64,000 bases of DNA from Loigolactobacillus coryniformis subsp. coryniformis KCTC 3167 = DSM 20001 (GTDB taxonomy: Bacteria > Bacillota > Bacilli > Lactobacillales > Lactobacillaceae). The stretch spans positions 1,364,001 to 1,428,000 of the forward strand of contig NZ_CP017713.1 in the NCBI RefSeq assembly GCF_002706425.1, given 5' to 3'. This document shows positions 1 through 18,546 of this stretch, one piece after another. Numbering within the stretch: the stretch's first letter is position 1; each line of letters begins with the position of its first letter. A program made the translations under genes and the position numbers. Below the pieces are notes generated by a model. The model was not told the DNA's origin. It was given only the letters and a program-made list of their open reading frames with translations, and ran no database searches.

Positions 1-291
1 CGCCATGCGTTCCGTCCTCGCGCATCGGAATGGCATCTAGCCAGCTCAGTCTCGTTTCCAGCTAAATTTCAATTTTAATATTAATTGATAACTATGGTGT
101 GCTAGACGGTAATCTGGGCGTTGTGTAAACGCTCTGGCGATTTTTATTTGCGTAAAGTCGTAAATACTGATTAAATAGATATATTTGAGGATCACGTAAA
201 ATTAAAATATAATTGAAACGTCGCTAAGTTAAAAATGCGGTTGTGGCCGTTTAACTGAAGGCGTAAATTACAGAAATGGATGAATGAACTG
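1..291. other. Intergenic region left of rnz, no gene seen
   Basis: All three plus-strand frames are closed within about 80 bases and no minus-strand frame could be assigned to a known gene. A short imperfect hairpin sits at about 2-34 (GCCA/TGGC and TTCCG/CGGAA arms), which could be the end of a palindrome or of an upstream transcription unit. A second hairpin (AGTTAAA at 227-233 pairing with TTTAACT at 250-256) lies in the untranslated leader of rnz. The left edge may cut an upstream feature. Confidence 0.4.
185..213 (+). promoter_or_regulatory. Predicted promoter of rnz
   Basis: TTGAGG at 185-190 and TATAAT at 208-213 with a 17-base spacer, a good sigma-A promoter. It lies about 80 bases upstream of the rnz start codon and would drive the rnz gene and probably the dehydrogenase gene behind it. 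Confidence 0.6.
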
Positions 292-2579: not shown

Positions 2580-4916
2580 ATGAAATCCCGTTATACTTGG
2601 CAGTATTTGCCGCAGCCACGAGCGGCGTTAGTCACCGAGCTTGCTGAAAAGTGTCAATTGGCACCAGCAGTGATCCGGTTACTGATCAATCGTGGACTAA
2701 CTGATCAAACAACAATTGAAAAATTTTTAAATCCGGGAGTGGATCAATTGCATGATCCACTTTTATTATTTGACATGCAAAAAGCGGTTGACCGTATTCG
2801 TCAGGCAATTGAAGCTAATCAATTGATCACAGTGTACGGCGATTACGACGCTGATGGGGTCACCAGCACCAGTATTATGCTGGAAACGTTGGAATCCTTA
2901 GGGGCCAACGTCAATATTTATATCCCGGACCGTTTTAATGAAGGTTATGGGCCCCACGAATCTTCGTTTAAACAATTATTAGACGCCGGGACGCAATTGA
3001 TCGTTACCGTCGACAATGGGATCAGTGGCAACGCGCCAATCGCCTATGCGCAAGCACAAGGTGTCGACGTGATCGTCACGGATCATCATGAATTGCCGCC
3101 AGAGTTACCGCCGGCATTTGCAATCGTTCATCCACGCCATCCGCAAGGCCACTATCCTTTTGGTGACCTTTCTGGTGTTGGCGTGGCTTTTAAAGTCGCT
3201 AGCGCTTTGCTTGAGGAAACGGCTGTCGATAGTTTTGATTTGGCCGCCATCGGTACGATCGGGGATCTAGTCTCCCTGACTGATGAAAATCGTGCCCTAG
3301 TTACCCTAGGTTTGCAACAGTTGCAGCAGTCAACGCGCCCAGGGATCACCGCACTTTGTGAAGTCGCGGGGATCGAGCAAGCTAAGATCGATGAACAATC
3401 GATTGGTTTTGCGATCGCGCCGCGGTTAAATGCCTTGGGCCGCTTAGGTGATGCTAAAGACGGTGTCAAATTATTGACCACCTTTGATCCTGATGAAGCA
3501 ACTGAGTTGGCTAAATTTGTCCAAACGCAAAATGAGCGCCGCCAGCAATACGTTAAAGACATTGCCGCAACCGCAATGGAAATGGCGCAGACACCAGAAA
3601 ATCAGCAGCGGCAAACCTTGGTGTTGGCCCACGCTGATTGGCATGAAGGGGTGCTGGGGATCGTTGCTAGTCGGATCGTCGAAGCTACCGGCAAACCTAC
3701 TTTAGTGTTGACGGAACGCGAAGATCATACGTATAAAGGCTCTGGCCGTAGTGTGCAGGCGTTTAATTTATTTAACGCTTTGGACCAATACCGTGATTTG
3801 ATGATCAGTTTTGGTGGTCACCATATGGCGGCTGGCTTAGCGGTCACGGCGGATAATTTAGCCGCGTTAAGTGCGGGCCTAGAAGCTCAGGCTGATGCGG
3901 TTGATCTGCGGCACCAAGCCCATGATGCTTTGAAAATCGATTTGCAGTTACCGGTGCCGGAAGTGACGACTGACTTTTTGCAGGCTTGTCAGCAGTTGGC
4001 GCCATTTGGTACCGACAATCCGGCACCACAGATCGCCGTTACACCAGAAAAGGTGACTGACGTGCGCGCAATCGGTGCGGATAAAGCACATTTGAAATTT
4101 AAATTGACCGCGGCCAATGCTAATCTGGATGTGATCGCCTTTCAAAAGGGGCAATACGCTGAGGATCTTACCGCTGCCGATCAGGTGACAGTGGTTGGCG
4201 AATTAGGCGAAAATGTTTGGCAAGGCCGGCGGACGCTGCAGTTGCAGTTAACCGATTTTGCTACTAGCGGCATCGAGATCATCGATAAGCGAACGACTCA
4301 TTTGACCCGCCATTTATTCCAGTACACGGCCACCTATGTCTTCTTCTCGGCTAAATTACAGCAACAGCTTAGTGGCTATTTGCCGGTCGACGCAACGGCA
4401 GTTTCGGCGCATGAACCATTTAACGTGGTCGGCGACACCTTGGTATTAGTTGATCTGCCGACTGATTTGGCGGCTTTAGCAACGTTATTACAAGCGCATC
4501 AGCAGGAATATGACAAGCTGATCAGCTTCTTTTACATGGCGCACCCGGTTTATTTAGCGGGAATGCCGACACGAGCGGAGTTTGCGCGCTTATTTAAATT
4601 CACTACTACCCATCGCGGCATTAACCTGCGGACGCAATTGGCGACGCTGGCTAATTACTTACATTTGAAAAAAGAATTATTGATTTTCATGATTCAAGTG
4701 TTTTCTGAGTTGGGTTTTGTTAAAATAGTTGATGGCGTCATGGACGGCGTGGCGCAGCCAGCCAAGGCTGACTTGCAGTCCGCCGCCAGTTATCAGCAGC
4801 GTCAGCAGCAAATGACTGCTGAGCAAGTGCTAGTTTATAGTAACTATCAAGAACTTAAAAATTGGTTAAACGCACATATTGTGCCAGATGAAGGAGCGAA
4901 AAGCAATGTCAGTTGA
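2580..4916 (+). CDS. recJ: Single-stranded-DNA-specific exonuclease RecJ
   Basis: 5'-3' single-strand DNA exonuclease used in recombination and repair. The DHH-family motif DYDADG is at residues 88-93, the VTDHHE motif follows near residue 165, and the DHHA1 motif with GGHHMAAG lies near residue 415. The 778-residue length reflects the extra C-terminal RecJ_C-type domain found in Lactobacillales. The ATG at 2580 is preceded by GGGAGCG. The last 11 bases overlap the apt coding region, so the two genes are translationally coupled; recJ-apt adjacency is normal in Firmicutes. Confidence 0.96.
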
Positions 4917-5424
4917 TTTACATGATTATATCGCCAGCGTGCCAGATTTTCCGGAAAAAGGGGTCATCTTTCGCGATATTTCACCATTGATGGCTGATGG
5001 GGAAGCTTATCACGAAGCTACGGATCAAATTGCAGCCTACGCTAAGGATAAAGGTGTCGATATGATCGTTGGCCCCGAAGCGCGTGGTTTTATCGTTGGT
5101 TGTCCCGTGGCCTACAAATTAGGTCTGGGTTTTGCCCCCGCGCGTAAAAAGGGTAAGTTGCCGCGGCCAACGGTTTCGGCTAGTTATGGGTTGGAATACG
5201 GTAAATCAACCTTATATTTGCACAAGGATGCGATCAAACCAGGGCAAAAAGTCTTAGTCACTGATGACTTATTGGCAACTGGTGGCACGATCGCCGCAAC
5301 GATCAAATTAGTCGAAGATCTCGGCGGAATCGTTGTTGGTACAGCTTTCTTGATCGAATTAAAGGATCTGGGCGGCCGCGAAAAAATCAAAGATTATGAT
5401 ATGTTAGCTTTATTGCAGTATTAA
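4906..5424 (+). CDS. apt: Adenine phosphoribosyltransferase
   Basis: Converts adenine and PRPP to AMP in purine salvage. 172 residues. The PRPP-binding motif [13 protein letters not shown] is intact and the N-terminal region ([18 protein letters not shown]) is typical. The start was placed at the ATG of 4906, 9 bases after AAGGAG (4891-4896); the reading frame is open further upstream inside recJ but without a site. The gene ends the rnz-apt block and is followed by the repeat and bidirectional terminator at 5591-5630. Confidence 0.96.
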
Positions 5425-5429
5425 AAAAG

Positions 5430-5703
5430 TGTGTGACATAAGATCATAGACTTTTCTGAAATATGGTTAGCGTGAAACAGAGCAGGTTAGATGCCATTCC
5501 ATCTGGCCCGCGGAAGCATATACCAAATTTAGTGGTGTGGTCGTCAATAATGGTTGCATAACTAAAAATAGTACAAGTTGTACGCAAAAATACCAGTAAA
5601 AACAGCTAAACCTGTTTTTACTGGTATTTTGTTTAGAAATGATTCGATTGATTTTAAAATTGCGAATGACTAAGCTTGAAGATAATGCAAAATCATACTA
5701 ACT
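5430..5703. repeat. Intergenic palindromic repeat, copy A (empty site)
   Basis: This stretch between the convergent genes apt and mvaS is repeated, diverged but clearly alignable, at 15640-16057. Shared blocks include TTCTGAA followed by a TGGTTAG.GTGAAACAG segment, GGTTAGAT...CATTCC, ATCTGGCC, a TGTACGCAAAAATACCAGTA block with its hairpin, and a final TAAAATTRCGAAT...AAGCTT block. It contains a hairpin GGTTAGATG/CATCTGGCC with loop CCATTC at about 5486-5508. Copy B has a 154-bp insertion exactly in that loop, so this copy represents the empty site. It begins GTGTGACATAAG, like the palindromes at 24059 and 62832. Confidence 0.75.
5591..5630. terminator. Bidirectional terminator between apt and mvaS
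   Basis: Perfect 15-bp stem: TACCAGTAAAAACAG (5591-5605) and its complement (5612-5626), loop CTAAAC, then TTTTG on the plus strand and an A-rich 5' side that gives a U tract on the minus strand. It lies between convergent genes and is nearly duplicated at 15951-15986, where the one stem change leaves a G-U pair, so pairing is kept. Confidence 0.8.
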
Positions 5704-5801
5704 AAGCATTTAGCCCAATTAATTATTCAATGTTCAGTTATTGCCGGAATGGAACCTAACCAGAGAATAAACTGATCACTTATAGTCAAGGTTTTTTTTT
5801 G

Positions 5802-14328: not shown

Positions 14329-15311
14329 ACGCGTGGTGCTAGTTCGTCATAAAATCAAAAAAGCCTAAATTGTATACCAATATCGTCAATTCAATCTTTA
14401 ATTGAAAACCAAATAGACTACGGGTGAGATTGGTTTCAATCCCAAATTGCTGGGCTAAAATTGAAAAGCGTGACTCTATTGTCCGCCGTAACGCCTTGAG
14501 TTGACGCTTATTATGCTATTTAGCACCTTTCATATTAGAACGATAAGGCGTCCATAAGTTATAGCCTAGGGCCCTAAAACTGGTCTTGAGTTTTTTCCCA
14601 ACATAACCAACATCGGCCAAAATATTGGGACAAGGACAACCGCTAATTAGCTCAGGCGCTACCTTAGCATCATGAACTGAGGCTGCCGTGATCACATAAT
14701 TCAGAATATAGCCATTAGCCGTGACGACCATGTGGGTTTTAAACCCATAAAATGGCATTTTCTTGGTGGCATTATAGCCAATGTTGGCCTTCCCAGCAAA
14801 AATTCTAACTCTGAAATTACGAACTTTGGCACATAGTGGGTTGGGTAAACTGTCGATAATCGCTAGGTCGCCCGAATGAGCATAATCCTTAGTGATACCT
14901 GAGCGAATGGTATTGACTACTGCCAGTAATTGTTGCGCGCGGCGGTTGAAACGTGAACGTGATACCACCATTTGCCGCGGCATAAACGCTGCCATCAGAT
15001 AATAGAAGCGGCGTTGCGATTGAATTCCCAGTGTGACTTGTAAGCACAGTAAAGCTAAAAGTTTAATATCAGTAATTTTAGTATGTTCAACGTTGCGCCG
15101 CTCAATGACGCTACGCGGACAATAACGCTGATAAAGCAATGAACATAACTGGTAAAAGTAATGGAAACTAACTTGTAATTCGTGACGATTTTGCTTAAAC
15201 TTGAGGTGGTTCAACACAGTTATTACTCCTTTTAAGTTTTGTCACTTATGAGTCTAACTGGGTTGGACTTTTTTGTTAAATTTCTAAATGTTACAAACTA
15301 GCACCACACGT
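14329..15311 (-). mobile_element. IS982-family insertion sequence
   Basis: 983 bp bounded by 15-bp inverted repeats: ACGCGTGGTGCTAGT at 14329-14343 and ACTAGCACCACACGT at 15297-15311 (one mismatch). It is flanked by a 9-bp direct duplication ATTCTATAC. The size, the repeats and the encoded transposase fit IS982. The intact duplication points to a fairly recent insertion, although the transposase now has a stop codon. It sits just before the -10 region of the antitoxin gene at 15353. Confidence 0.88.
14339..15217 (-). pseudogene. IS982-family transposase, interrupted by an in-frame stop
   Basis: The reading frame from ATG 15217 gives 233 residues of an IS982 transposase (start MLNHLKFKQNRHEL; DDE aspartates in AIIDSLPNP and ILADVGYVG) and stops at a TAG at 14516-14518. 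The same frame continues for 58 more codons (HNKRQLKALRRTIESRFS... to GFFDFMTN) and ends at TAG 14339-14341, where the family normally ends. The third catalytic residue, the Glu of RRTIESRF, lies beyond the premature stop, so the short product should be inactive. A single CAG-to-TAG change would explain it. Confidence 0.88.
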
Positions 15312-15352: not shown

Positions 15353-15616
15353 GTGCACGAAGCTAAAACAAAAAAAATCGCAATTTCATTTAAAGTCGAT
15401 CAACATGATAAAGAATTGGCGACCGAAATTTACAAAAATCTAGGCTTGAATTTGTCAACTGCTTTTCAAATGTTTTTAAAAAAGTCAATTGCGGAAGGTG
15501 GCTTACCTTTTGATGCGCGTGATCCATTTTATAGCCAGGCTAATATTGAAAATATTCTCGCTTCAAAAAAACAGCTTGATGATGATCAAGGGGCGGTGAG
15601 CGAAGGAGATCAGTAA
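15353..15616 (+). CDS. RelB/DinJ-family antitoxin, without a partner toxin
   Basis: 87 residues. KKIAISFKVDQHDKELATEIYKNLGLNLSTAFQMFLKKSIAEGGLPF is the ribbon-helix-helix plus linker typical of DinJ antitoxins, which repress their own operon and bind a YafQ/RelE toxin. The GTG start is preceded by GAGGAGG. No toxin follows: after an AAGGAG site (15603-15608) there is an ATG at 15624 with only seven codons before TGA, and then the repeat element begins. The toxin seems to have been lost or replaced. Confidence 0.85.
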   Translation: MHEAKTKKIAISFKVDQHDKELATEIYKNLGLNLSTAFQMFLKKSIAEGGLPFDARDPFYSQANIENILASKKQLDDDQGAVSEGDQ

Positions 15617-15699
15617 GAAATCATGAAAAGTCTGCTTAATGTGTGAGACTCTTTCTGAAGTGTGGTTAGGGTGAAACAGAATTGGTTAGATTTCATTCC

Positions 15700-15853
15700 A
15701 GCGCAAGTGGACGGAACGAGTGGCGGTTTGGCGAGCTAACTTTTCCAGTTCAAAGCAAAAGCGGGTGGAAAAGTGGATCTCGCCAATACCGCATAGTTGT
15801 AAATGGTAAAACCCACCATTAACAACTATCGACACATCTGGTCCACTTGCGCT
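15700..15853. mobile_element. 154-bp structured insertion with perfect terminal inverted repeats
   Basis: Bounded by 13-bp perfect inverted repeats AGCGCAAGTGGAC (15700-15712) and GTCCACTTGCGCT (15841-15853). Inside are two long hairpins: arm 1, GCGGTTTGGCGAG (15723-15735) with CTCGCCAATACCGC (15779-15792), extended by CTTTTCC/GGAAAAG (15740-15746 and 15767-15773); arm 2, ATAGTTGTAAATGGT (15793-15807) with ACCATTAACAACTAT (15815-15829), 14 of 15 paired. Together they form a three-way junction. Copy A of the surrounding repeat lacks it, and CATTCC/CACTCC border it like an imperfect 6-bp duplication. It has no convincing gene. It could be a MITE-like element or a structured RNA gene. Confidence 0.7.
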
Positions 15854-15950
15854 TCCACTCCATCTGGCCGCAGTGGCACATGTCAGACTTAATTGTATTG
15901 CCGTCAATTGTCATTACACAATTCAAAATAGTTCAAGCTGTACGCAAAAA

Positions 15951-15990
15951 TACCAGTAGAAACAGTTAAATCTGTTTTTACTGGTATTTT
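15951..15990. terminator. Bidirectional terminator, second copy
   Basis: TACCAGTAGAAACAG (15951-15965) pairs with CTGTTTTTACTGGTA (15972-15986), one G-U pair, loop TTAAAT, then TTTTG. Near copy of the terminator at 5591-5630. Confidence 0.8.
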
Positions 15991-16057
15991 GTTTAGAAAT
16001 AATTTGCTTGATTCTAAAATTACGAATTATCAAGCTTAAAGGTAACATATTAGCACA

Positions 16058-16270
16058 CTAATTAACGACCACGCTGGCGATGTCGTTGCGGTGCAGTTTG
16101 GTGTGGCCGCAGCTGGAGGTGATGATGTATTGTTCGGCCGCGCCGATGTTGAAAAAGTTGCGGGCGGTGGTGTTGATCACGGCGTCATCGGTGATTACTT
16201 GAACGTTGTGGACTTGTTCTAAAATTAATTGTTCGCCGGAGTGCAGCAGTAGCGTTAGTGTTTTGACCAT
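16058..16270 (-). CDS. Hypothetical 70-residue protein
   Basis: From ATG 16270 (AAGGAGC 9 bases upstream on the minus strand) the product starts MVKTLTLLLHSGEQLILEQV and is rich in beta-type alternation, with one Cys-Gly-His (SSCGHTKL) near residue 52. There is no signal peptide or membrane segment. The open frame continues upstream, but without a site. It is divergent from the ArsR regulator gene with a 170-bp shared upstream region, so it may be its target. No family recognised. Confidence 0.6.
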   Translation of the reverse strand: MVKTLTLLLHSGEQLILEQVHNVQVITDDAVINTTARNFFNIGAAEQYIITSSCGHTKLHRNDIASVVVN

Positions 16271-16440
16271 TTTGTAAGCTCCTTCATTTTTGTCATATCT
16301 ATAAGATAAGCCGGATGAAGTTGATAAGCAAAAATAACGCATAGGCAGCTCCGTCTCGATTTGCTTTCTCAATGTGGTTTTTTGGCGGCTAAGCGGTTAG
16401 ACTAGGAGCATGCGTTTAAACTTATGAACGGAGGTGGTGA

Positions 16441-16785
16441 ATGACAATGGACAAGCAAGCAACTTTAGCGGCAATCACGCAGGGGTTTGTGCAATCGCAA
16501 AGCCTGTTATTGGCTTTAGGGGATGAAAATCGGCAGTTGCTCATTATTGCCTTATTGCGTTTTGGCTGTGATGGCGCGCGGGTCGGGGCACTGACGGCGC
16601 AGACGCATTTATCACGGCCGGCGGTGTCGCATCATTTAAAAATATTGAAGGACGCTGACTTGGTGACGTTACGCAAAGAAGGGACCAAGCATTATTATGC
16701 GGTGAATCCCAACGGCAACTTCGCGGTGATCCAATCAACAACAGCTATGATCCAAGCTTTAGCGGTAACGTCTAAAGTTCCATGA
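16441..16785 (+). CDS. ArsR-family winged-helix regulator
   Basis: 114 residues with the ArsR/SmtB DNA-binding fold: LLLALGDENRQLLIIALL, then LSRPAVSHHLKILKDADLVTLRKEGTKHYYAV as recognition helix and wing. The usual metal-binding Cys residues of the ELCVCDL motif are absent (here a single Cys in RFGCDGAR), so it probably senses something other than a thiol-bound metal. GGAGG stands 6 bases before ATG 16441. An imperfect dyad CGTT...AACG (about 16413-16430) upstream could be its operator, controlling itself and the divergent 70-residue gene. Confidence 0.85.
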   Translation: MTMDKQATLAAITQGFVQSQSLLLALGDENRQLLIIALLRFGCDGARVGALTAQTHLSRPAVSHHLKILKDADLVTLRKEGTKHYYAVNPNGNFAVIQSTTAMIQALAVTSKVP

Positions 16786-16957
16786 AACCCAAGTTCAAAA
16801 CCGGATGTTCAGGGAGGGGATGATGTTTATTGTACGGCATCACTGTCCACGGATGAAACGAACTTAATTCAAGCGTTGCTTCTCACTGGATCTTGCCTAT
16901 TTTATGTGTTCTAGGGTACACAAATTAAGCCTTAGTTAGTCTGATTTTTCAGAATAT

Positions 16958-18403
16958 CTAGGCTGCTGTTGGTAATTGAGACTGCGCTAGTTCAATTAGC
17001 GCCAGCCATTTGTCCGGCATTCGTTCAAACGGTTTGAGTTGTGGTAACTCAACAGGAATGCGGTAATGCAGTGCTTCATGAGGCCGCAAGAAGTTATAGG
17101 CCGCTGAATAAAGTGCCGTGTAACTCGCTGAACCTGTGGCAGAGCCAAAGCCGGTACTGGAACGATAATTTTCTTTGTAGGAACGATTCAAGCGCTCAAT
17201 GGTTTGCTTTAAGAAGCGGTACTCACGACTGATCTCATCTTTGTTTTCAAGACCAACAACCTGGTGAATGCCAAACTTGATGCCCTGTTGTGCAAAATAG
17301 ATCTGGGCAACTTGGTAGATCGGATTCGCGTCAACGACGAAGTTAAGCTTCTCAGGGATCTGAGGCATCTTTTGGAGGACTTGGTTGATCGCAATGACCG
17401 CTGATTCGGTTGTGCGATTAGGGGTCACGTAGTCGGCGAGAATGAGCTTACACTTGGCGTCGTAGAAGTAGAAGATATAGTGCCACTTGTCTTTCACGCG
17501 CACGTAAGTCTCGTCACCAACAATCTGATCGGACAGTGCGTAAGGATAATTCGCCCAGAAAGGCCGGACAACAGCGGCTACCGCCATTTCGTAGTTATGG
17601 ATTGTCTGGTGTGAGATTTTAACGCCATGGATATCGTACATGATCGCCGCGGTTCGCCGCGCTGACAGACCATAGTTGATGTGATAGGTCAGCACCAAGC
17701 CCAGCACTTCAGGGCTGGCTTGAATCCGATCGAGGTCTACCGGTGCTTGGATCGGCGATTCTGGCGCAATGCCTTTAAGTTCAAAGTTGTAGGTTCGCCA
17801 AGTGTAGCGCACCTTGTGGGCAGTTGGATGGACGTTGAAGTCAGCGACTTCAGCCGGTGACATTGCGGCGATCGCACCAAGGCGAAAAGCGCACTTATCG
17901 TTGTAACAACACCAGACGTCGAACTTGGTCCGACGGTTGTGAATACTCAGGCGATTCTGGCAATAAGGACAACGTAAAGCGACCGTCTTATTCTTCTCGG
18001 CGTGACCATCTTGAAACTTGAACTGACAGACCTTGCACCGTAGCTGACCGCCAGCACCGTTATTGGCGTAAAGATAGTCCTGTGGTGCCGAGCACCGCGG
18101 ACAGTCTTGCGCCGCAAAGCTGATTGGTTTACGCCGCCTGACTGGCAGTATCGGCTTACCGTTCTTTTCAAGCGACTCAGCGATCAACTGCTGGTAGTCG
18201 AGGGCTTCAGAACCGATATCAGCTTGAAGTAGTGGGACTTTCTCATCGACCTGAAATTGGTTAAAACGCTTGAATACCGGTTTATCAGCGCTTGGCAGCC
18301 GTGAATGATCAAAGATCTCAGCCAACTGAGCTAAAAGGATCAAAATAATTTGTCTTTGGAGCTTGATTATTAGAACTAAATAGGCTATTAATGGTGTATG
18401 CAC
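16958..18403 (-). CDS. Large DDE transposase with zinc ribbons (IS6/IS240-type core)
   Basis: About 481 residues from GTG 18403, which has AAGGATT just upstream; the frame is open to 18445 but with no site there. Near residues 100-170 there are Cys pairs (CPRCSAP, CKVCQFKF, CPYCQNRL, CCYNDKC) forming zinc ribbons, then a helix-turn-helix region (NYGLSARRTAAIMYD), then a DDE core: VGDETYVRVKDKWHYIFYFYD, NFVVDANPIYQ and a later Glu. The IS ends are not clear: GGGTACACAAA near 16914 and a GGTACTGTCAAA-like end near 18522 are candidates. It probably inserted behind the ArsR gene. Confidence 0.8.
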   Translation of the reverse strand: MHTPLIAYLVLIIKLQRQIILILLAQLAEIFDHSRLPSADKPVFKRFNQFQVDEKVPLLQADIGSEALDYQQLIAESLEKNGKPILPVRRRKPISFAAQDCPRCSAPQDYLYANNGAGGQLRCKVCQFKFQDGHAEKNKTVALRCPYCQNRLSIHNRRTKFDVWCCYNDKCAFRLGAIAAMSPAEVADFNVHPTAHKVRYTWRTYNFELKGIAPESPIQAPVDLDRIQASPEVLGLVLTYHINYGLSARRTAAIMYDIHGVKISHQTIHNYEMAVAAVVRPFWANYPYALSDQIVGDETYVRVKDKWHYIFYFYDAKCKLILADYVTPNRTTESAVIAINQVLQKMPQIPEKLNFVVDANPIYQVAQIYFAQQGIKFGIHQVVGLENKDEISREYRFLKQTIERLNRSYKENYRSSTGFGSATGSASYTALYSAAYNFLRPHEALHYRIPVELPQLKPFERMPDKWLALIELAQSQLPTAA

Positions 18404-18546
18404 TCGAATCCTTCTTTCTGGATTTTCTTGTTGTTCGCACACCAAGAATACCAGAAAAAGACGTTCGGGTGTTTTTTAATATTCGGAAATTAATAACAAA
18501 AACGAGGTACGTTTGACAGTACCGCTTTAGCACAGGAGGAAAATTA

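What the first reader, a model, noticed from the sequence alone, without database searches (positions are those of the whole stretch)
15700..15853. Three-armed 154-bp element inserted in the loop of a repeated hairpin
The sequence has 13-bp perfect terminal inverted repeats and two internal long hairpins (about 20 and 15 bp), giving a three-way junction. The surrounding repeat exists without it at 5430-5703, so the insertion is shown by comparison, not by assumption. It sits exactly in the apical loop (CATTCC|ATCTGG) of a palindrome, with CATTCC/CACTCC on the two sides. Insertion into palindrome loops is known for some IS110-type elements, but this element has no transposase. It may be a non-autonomous mobile element moved by a transposase elsewhere, or a mobile structured RNA.
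Basis: partly seen in the sequence, partly recalled or inferred. Interest (0 to 1): 0.75.

Follow-up and report, generated by a model that had tools for sequence, protein, structure and literature searches.

The report
Mobile repeat with paired Y-shaped ends
The 154-base hairpin is one of two mirror-image Y-shaped halves of a probably mobile, transposase-free DNA repeat that is scattered through several groups of lactic-acid bacteria, has landed in the loops of transcription stop signals in one group of species, and looks conserved as folded DNA rather than as RNA.

Summary
In detail: window 15700-15853 folds into an outer stem and two arms (z -8.3). The 154 bp are not a separate element but one half of a larger repeat (mostly 500-900 bp) whose complete copies carry a second, diverged, inverted Y-shaped domain. 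DNA matches occur in 6 of 8 genus genomes. Stems covary while unpaired boxes stay conserved, but at well-paired positions G-T does not exceed A-C, unlike an SRP-RNA control; so the structure is most likely kept as DNA. In two Loigolactobacillus species the rejoined flanks are terminator hairpins (0 of 10,000 permutations), with 8-bp duplications in several copies. Copy A's site is a bare terminator in two sister species, so copy A is itself an insertion; its missing cores look like deletions, not an empty site. An ISL3-type transposase is the inferred mover in that genus. In G323, the richest genome, neither terminator targeting nor duplications were detectable. Closest known kind: composite MITE-like repeats such as pneumococcal BOX.

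The parts
15700..15853 (+). Left Y-shaped domain (three-way junction) of the repeat, copy B: outer stem 15700-15712/15841-15853, arm 1 about 15723-15792 (internal loop CTAAC/GTGGAT), arm 2 about 15793-15829, then CGACAC
   Evidence: fold z -8.3; model hits of 174.8 bits with R1 and 135.6 bits with R2; 27-copy alignment
15684..15691 (+). 5' strand of the second outer stem, GGTTAGAT
   Evidence: read; pairs with 15862-15869
15694..15699 (+). CATTCC box, unpaired flank of the domain
   Evidence: (C)ATTCC-type box recurs in the genus and at several distant loci
15854..15861 (+). TCCACTCC box, unpaired flank of the domain
   Evidence: TCCAYTCC-type box recurs
15862..15869 (+). 3' strand of the second outer stem, ATCTGGCC
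   Evidence: read
15647..15660 (+). Left end motif of copy B, GACTCTTTCTGAAG (cf. GGTTCTTTCTGAAG)
   Evidence: by comparison with copies in G002/G004
15946..15990 (.). Terminator-like hairpin in the middle of the repeat (AAAAATACCAGT..ACTGGTATTTT); near copies elsewhere in the genome
15870..16058 (+). Middle part of copy B; no right domain was found after it, so the copy looks truncated near the minus-strand ORF 16058-16372
5425..5800 (.). Copy A with the halves of the terminator it sits in, downstream of the phosphoribosyltransferase gene (4879-5424); both Y domains missing, single CATTCC at 5495-5500 and single GGAATGG at 5746-5752
   Evidence: the orthologous site is a bare terminator in G003 and G004
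5586..5630 (.). Terminator-like hairpin in the middle of copy A
1..26 (-). Edge of a third copy whose left domain lies at genome 1363872-1364026, minus strand, mostly outside the window

Best explanation
It is a non-autonomous, MITE-like repeat of Lactobacillaceae. Its distinguishing part is a pair of inverted Y-shaped (three-way-junction) DNA domains, one on each side of a middle of about 170-450 bp. Shown here: dispersed copies in several genera; paired inverted domains; covarying stems with conserved unpaired boxes; no RNA-like G-U bias at well-paired positions; in two Loigolactobacillus species, insertion into terminator hairpins, with 8-bp duplications in several copies; an interspecies empty site for copy A. 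Inferred: in that genus an ISL3-family transposase acting in trans on the GGYTCTTT-type ends moves it. The Y domains act as folded DNA (cruciform, or single strand during replication) bound by the transposase or a host protein, which keeps them paired and inverted. The middle terminator-like hairpin replaces the terminator that insertion breaks. The core-less copies A, L039, L037 and L032 arose by slippage deletion between the direct repeats (CATTCC..CAYTCC, GGAATGG..GGAATGG) that flank each hairpin.
For: Copies: 6 of 8 genus genomes match the 173-base query, 2 to 22 matching pieces each; 26 of 397 family genomes match R1; 17 of 18 chosen genomes match R2, G323 with 150 of the 150 candidates scored. 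Paired inverted domains in Loigolactobacillus, G323, G297, G292 and, by listed coordinates, G360. Covariation in 89 distinct G323 domains: 919 cells changed on both sides, score 0.578 against 0.179 shuffled and 0.035-0.093 slid. G-T/A-C at pairs >=85% Watson-Crick: 22/22 in G323, 4/9 in Loigolactobacillus left domains, 24/41 in the mixed set, 1/5 in 22 G292 domains; SRP control 19/0; Fisher p 8e-5, G323 against SRP. Terminators: rejoined flanks of 14 copies -15.7 against -8.9 kcal/mol, 0 of 10,000 permutations; 8-bp flanks alike at >=7 of 8 in 5 of 14 against 0.5% of mismatched pairs. Empty site. ISL3 copies of the own genome have GGCTCTTT/GGTTCTAT ends; of the four with both ends in view, three have identical 8-bp flanks, one of them in a terminator-like hairpin (by eye).
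Against: Counting all pairs of the Loigolactobacillus left domains, G-T is 47 against 9 A-C: one pair is G-U in 27 of 27 and another U-G in 16 of 27, else U-A; both are what an RNA would allow, and the >=85% filter leaves them out. ISL3 transposases occur in 8 of 8 genus genomes, including G001, where no domain was found among 150 scored candidates. The end similarity to ISL3 is short (14 of 22, by eye); two ISL3 copies with both ends in view, L244 and L249, lack matching 8-bp flanks. In G323 neither terminator targeting nor target duplication was detectable in 27 copies, and its ends differ. No autonomous copy was found. In G292 arm 1 lacks the CTA/GGAT boxes. Template-switch correction of hairpins could maintain complementarity without selection.
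Confidence: 0.6

Rival explanations
1. The Y domain is a structured RNA (regulatory or catalytic) spread by a mobile repeat.
For: Very stable fold, covariation and conserved unpaired boxes are what structured RNAs show. In the Loigolactobacillus left domains all pairs together give 47 G-T against 9 A-C, 43 of the 47 from two pairs: G-U in 27 of 27, and U-G in 16 of 27 with U-A in the rest.
Against: No G-U excess over A-C at pairs >=85% Watson-Crick in three lineages, while an SRP control shows 19:0; in G323 all pairs give 29:112. The two domains of a copy lie on opposite strands. No Rfam family reached its threshold over the core; the best hit inside the core has E 2.9. Gene context in G323 is mixed: 18 co-directional, 6 convergent and 3 divergent of 27 resolved, 2 more unresolved, genes being plain ORF calls.
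Confidence: 0.13
2. One reading: the 154-bp core is its own mobile element that inserted into the loop of an older palindrome, and copy A is the empty site.
For: Copy A lacks exactly the core; CATTCC/CACTCC could be a 6-bp target duplication; L039 and L032 also show one CATTCC and no left core.
Against: The core with similar flank boxes occurs in other genera; the right domain is the inverted partner in complete copies; L037 keeps a stump of the right domain, so deletion happens. Slippage between direct repeats at the foot of a hairpin is an established route (general knowledge).
Confidence: 0.12
3. No function in the structure: quasi-palindrome template switching during replication keeps the arms complementary, and the repeat is an inert MITE.
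For: Equal G-T and A-C is also what template switching would give; hairpins are prone to it (general knowledge).
Against: Asymmetric internal loops and junction boxes stay unpaired and conserved: 23 of 45 unpaired columns are >=90% identical in G323 against 18 of 88 paired; the contrast is weaker in G292, 34 of 47 against 48 of 76. Several boxes are shared between left and right domains and with other genera (by eye). Correction alone would tend to erase them.
Confidence: 0.2
4. The repeat has been co-opted as a spare bidirectional transcription terminator at gene ends.
For: Insertion into terminators in Loigolactobacillus; a terminator-like hairpin in the middle of several copies.
Against: It does not explain the paired Y domains; in G323 18 of 27 resolved copies lie between co-directional genes and no terminator targeting was seen.
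Confidence: 0.15

Closest known systems
Pneumococcal BOX (with RUP and SPRITE), PMC3049150 (passages seen)
   Same: Composite, modular, strongly folding intergenic repeat; BOX and RUP are said to have terminal inverted repeats and target duplications; the repeats cluster and insert into one another
   Different: BOX is boxA/boxB(n)/boxC, 67-637 bp; here two inverted Y domains with conserved boxes in several genera, insertion into terminator hairpins, and a DNA-type mismatch pattern. Sequence relationship not tested directly
MITEs in general, e.g. QMITE2 of Coxiella (PMC10969869, passages seen)
   Same: Inverted-repeat ends, short direct repeats, many copies, stable fold, presumed mobilisation by an IS in trans
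   Different: Mostly 500-900 bp with two paralogous inverted three-way junctions under structural constraint
ISL3-family insertion sequences (family traits recalled; copies read)
   Same: GGYTCT ends and 8-bp duplications; one copy in this genome sits in a terminator-like hairpin
   Different: The repeat carries no transposase, its end matches over 14 of 22 positions, and other genera have different ends
REP palindromes and IS that insert into them (PMC1525189, search listing only)
   Same: Palindrome-related insertion, intergenic dispersion
   Different: Not a short REP; no RAYT-type transposase was tested for
T-shaped inverted terminal repeats of adeno-associated parvoviruses (recalled, a lead only)
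   Same: A stem carrying two short arms, present at both ends in inverted orientation
   Different: No relation in sequence, host or gene content is claimed; domains here are subterminal and lie in a bacterial chromosome

Membership tests
MITE (non-autonomous transposon) | Multiple dispersed homologous copies | tested here: met
MITE (non-autonomous transposon) | Terminal inverted repeats | tested here: met
   GGTTCTTTC..GAAAGAACC-like ends in G002/G004; CTAGTG-like start at both ends of some G006/G007 copies (by eye); weak in G323
MITE (non-autonomous transposon) | Target-site duplication | tested here: inconclusive
   8 bp in several G002/G004 copies; not detected in 27 G323 copies
MITE (non-autonomous transposon) | Empty sites in relatives | tested here: met
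   copy A only: bare terminator at the orthologous site in G003 and G004, with no match to copy A's DNA there and no domain at any of the 8 loci. In G002 the downstream sequence differs and the G006 locus ends early
MITE (non-autonomous transposon) | No transposase gene of its own | tested here: met
   judged by length only: 14 copies of 308-909 bp and 27 G323 copies of 375-896 bp; their small ORFs were not scanned for families
ISL3-derived element | Ends and target duplication like the resident ISL3 | tested here: inconclusive
   8-bp duplication and GGYTCT start shared, rest of the ends weak
ISL3-derived element | Mobilised by an ISL3 transposase | not testable with these tools
   needs a transposition assay
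Rfam RNA family | Score above a curated threshold | tested here: not met
Structured RNA | G-U pairs tolerated far more than A-C | tested here: not met
   well-paired positions; exception: all pairs of the Loigolactobacillus left domains, 47:9, from two pairs
Pneumococcal BOX | Homology to boxA/boxB/boxC | not tested
   only an R2 search over 295 genomes of the order: 5 hits, all in this family
IS110/IS1111 element | DEDD transposase gene and its guide RNA | not tested
   the measured copies are short; a link in trans was not examined

The most novel reading that the evidence does not exclude
A transposon class whose end recognition is by DNA shape. Each end carries a three-way-junction domain that must fold (cruciform or single strand) and is read by a protein through conserved unpaired boxes, while the sequence of the stems is free to change. 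The T-shaped ends would work like the inverted terminal repeats of parvoviruses, but inside a bacterial chromosome, and across several genera they would be coupled to different outer ends.
Probability: 0.2. Interest if true: 0.85.

Novelty: new variant of a known kind. Interest (0 to 1): 0.6.

Why it matters
Branched structure under strong covariation is usually taken as the mark of a functional RNA. Here the same pattern appears with the mismatch symmetry of DNA, in a repeat with at least 150 domains in one genome, so it offers a natural test set for how folded DNA is recognised and maintained. It also gives a concrete case of mobile DNA that lands in terminator hairpins, with an interspecies empty site, and a caution for RNA-family discovery: check G-U against A-C before calling a covarying structure an RNA.

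Tried and rejected
Known RNA family: rejected, no Rfam hit above threshold over the core and only weak hits at E<=10. Plasmid or phage location: no match to 15640-16060 in the plasmid or phage collection. Spread beyond the family: R2 over 295 genomes of the order hit 5, all Lactobacillaceae, with only 10 candidates scored per genome, so absence elsewhere is weak evidence. Of the 117 stretches found with a 16-base pattern in public genomes (80 listed, the rest) many come from unrelated organisms and I took those for chance without testing them; the three from other lactobacilli genera (L097, L129, L138) gave no R1 match at E<=0.05. Autonomous partner: none found; ends and domains in the loci read gave no conserved long element, but no systematic genome-wide search for one was made. 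Terminator targeting and target duplication in G323: not found. The SRP control failed twice because minus-strand loci were not turned and worked with 29 of 30 sequences (one empty). ISL3 presence as a predictor: not useful. Papers: 8 searches showed no description of this repeat in the rows listed; three lists were cut (15 of 88, 15 of 256, 10 of 60,435), and the library holds open-licence papers only. PMC2267715 (passages) names stem-loop repeat families of other Firmicutes; I did not compare their sequences.

Selections: 11 of 24 candidate end pairs were kept by eye and 3 were added by hand (L025, L030, L039). One search repeats the test with 11 of the 13 dropped pairs put back: still 0 of 10,000 permutations. 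For two L199 pairs there the right end was moved inward so that the flank fitted; two other L199 pairs were left out. L025 shows the 8-bp repeat only when its end positions are shifted by one or two bases and counts as 0 of 8. One search used 89 of 90 G323 domains. G323 regions were chosen for hit density, so 90 matches in 388,740 bases (one domain counted twice because two regions overlap) is not a genome-wide density.

Mended on the second reading: wording of the two G-U pairs (one fixed, one in 16 of 27), the all-pairs count 47:9, the place of GGAATGG in copy A, the middle length, and several scopes. 

Full report
WHAT WAS CHECKED. The 154 bases at 15700-15853 are as described: a 13-bp outer stem and two arms, folding at -75.6 kcal/mol against -42 for shuffles (z -8.3). 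Copy A at 5430-5760 lacks them and reads CATTCC|ATCTGG.

THE ELEMENT IS LARGER. A 173-base query hits 7 of 41 genomes, 6 of them among the 8 genomes of the genus; matching pieces: own 2, G002 9, G003 6, G004 22, G006 11, G007 7; the seventh genome, G022, has a 23-base fragment. G001 and G005 have none, though the broader model R2 finds 6 domains in G005. Similarity between loci runs far beyond the core, up to about 800 bases. Complete copies read: left end, CATTCC, left Y domain, TCCAYTCC, a middle that in several copies holds a terminator-like hairpin, then a second Y domain in the opposite orientation, GGAATGG, right end. The right domain is a paralogue: the model built only from 27 left domains (A1, R1) finds it on the other strand (for example L005 at 128 bits, L003 at 122 bits).

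MODULARITY. In some copies the junction carries further arms at fixed places, or arms are swapped: one arm after GTG or CTG in several G002 and G004 copies, another insert in arm 2 of G006 and G007 copies. This resembles the modular BOX repeats of pneumococcus (PMC3049150, passages).

BREADTH. R1 finds relatives in 26 of 397 Lactobacillaceae genomes, 7 of 40 genera, with 7 candidates scored per genome. The broader R2 (63 sequences) hits 17 of 18 chosen genomes, 1 to 150 each, G001 none; in G323 all 150 scored candidates matched, so its count is a lower bound. Over 295 genomes of the order R2 hits 5, all Lactobacillaceae, including two further genera. The weakest genera (best E about 1e-8 to 1e-3) are less certain. 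Inverted pairs of domains recur in G323, G297 and G292, so the pairing is older than one genus. No match in the plasmid and phage collections.

DNA, NOT RNA. On 89 distinct G323 domains 90.4% of cells form standard pairs, 919 cells changed on both sides, covariation score 0.578 against 0.179 for shuffles and 0.035-0.093 for slid structures (the alignment was fitted to the structure, which favours it). RNA helices tolerate G-U far more than A-C; DNA has no such preference for one strand. At pairs >=85% Watson-Crick the G-T to A-C counts are 22:22 (G323), 4:9 (Loigolactobacillus left domains), 24:41 (mixed set), 1:5 (22 G292 domains), against 19:0 in 29 SRP RNAs of the same family (Fisher p 8e-5 for G323 against SRP). 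At >=60% it is 29:95 in G323 against 56:5 in SRP, but part of that A-C excess sits in a few columns. Against this reading: over all pairs the Loigolactobacillus left domains give 47:9, because one pair is G-U in 27 of 27 and another is U-G in 16 of 27 and U-A in 11; the filter excludes both. All pairs give 77:68 in the mixed set and 29:112 in G323. Unpaired columns are more conserved than paired ones in G323 (mean identity 0.83 against 0.71) and slightly in G292 (0.90 against 0.87), with boxes GTG, CTA, GGAT and CGACAC in G323; G292 lacks the CTA/GGAT boxes in arm 1. Conserved unpaired boxes argue against simple template-switch correction as the whole story.

MOVEMENT. In G002 and G004 (and one copy of the own genome, L039) the ends are GGTTCTTTCTGAAG-like. 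Joining the flanks of 14 copies gives mean -15.7 kcal/mol against -8.9 for mismatched flanks, 0 of 10,000 derangements; the best of them (L004, L010, L016, L025, L039, L200) are hairpins with A- and T-tracts, that is, intrinsic terminators, while L003, L030, L181 and L182 fold weakly. The 8-bp flanks are identical in L004, L010 and L016, alike at 7 of 8 in L003 and L030, identical in L025 when the ends are shifted by one or two bases, and do not match in others (L182 1 of 8, L200 2 of 8). The result stands when dropped candidates are restored. At copy A's site, between a phosphoribosyltransferase gene and an HMG-CoA synthase gene, G003 and G004 have a bare 11-bp terminator; no domain was found at this site in any of the 8 genus genomes, and copy A's DNA has no match there in G003 or G004. 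So copy A is an insertion into a terminator. In G323 the same tests are negative in 27 copies, and the ends differ.

WHO MOVES IT. ISL3 transposases occur in 8 of 8 genus genomes. The own genome's ISL3 copies begin GGCTCTTTGTCAAA and end (reverse) GGTTCTAT. Of the four with both ends in view, L236, L248 and L257 have identical 8-bp flanks and L244 does not; L257 sits in a terminator-like hairpin; L249 of G004 has no matching flanks (by eye). This makes an ISL3-type transposase the best candidate in this genus; it is not shown, and the transposase is also present where no repeat was found.

COPY A AND DELETION. Each Y domain is flanked by direct repeats (CATTCC..CAYTCC on the left; GGAATGG..GGAATGG on the right). 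Copies A and L039 lack both domains, L032 lacks only the left one, L037 keeps a stump of the right one. Deletion by slippage at the foot of a hairpin explains all four; insertion of the core with a 6-bp duplication is not strictly excluded.

VERDICT. Observation confirmed; interpretation partly supported. It is, as far as my searches go, an undescribed and widespread MITE-like repeat family whose hallmark is a pair of inverted Y-shaped domains that behave like conserved folded DNA. How the Y domains work is inferred, not shown.

Noticed in passing
window 14516-15217 minus: 233-aa protein with transposase DDE-domain matches (PF13612, PF01609), near copy B.
   Followed up: no
window 16958-18445 minus: 495-aa protein with DDE_Tnp_IS240/IS66-type matches; the stretch from about 16764 to 16956 has eight near copies at 93-96% elsewhere in the own genome, probably an insertion-sequence end.
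   Followed up: partly
window 15353-15616 plus: RelB-type antitoxin gene (PF04221) directly before copy B.
   Followed up: no
L176, L183-L190, L199, L200; L018, L022, L027: Extra structured arms inserted at fixed junction positions of the Y domain, one of them (CGACTTGAACT..GCGACAGTG) twice in L190.
   Followed up: partly
G292 contig C1, 1420000-1479999 (L350-L352): 14 Y domains in 60 kb, against 65 found in the whole 2.8-Mb genome (capped search); reason unknown.
   Followed up: no
L271 10692, L287 14032, L289 245: A second repeated motif in G323 (TGCCAGAGTCCGTTAC..) resembling the element's left end.
   Followed up: no
L263 9210, L274 3308, L262 2180 in G323: Left ends that occur twice, about 180-350 bases apart, before a single right end.
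   Followed up: no
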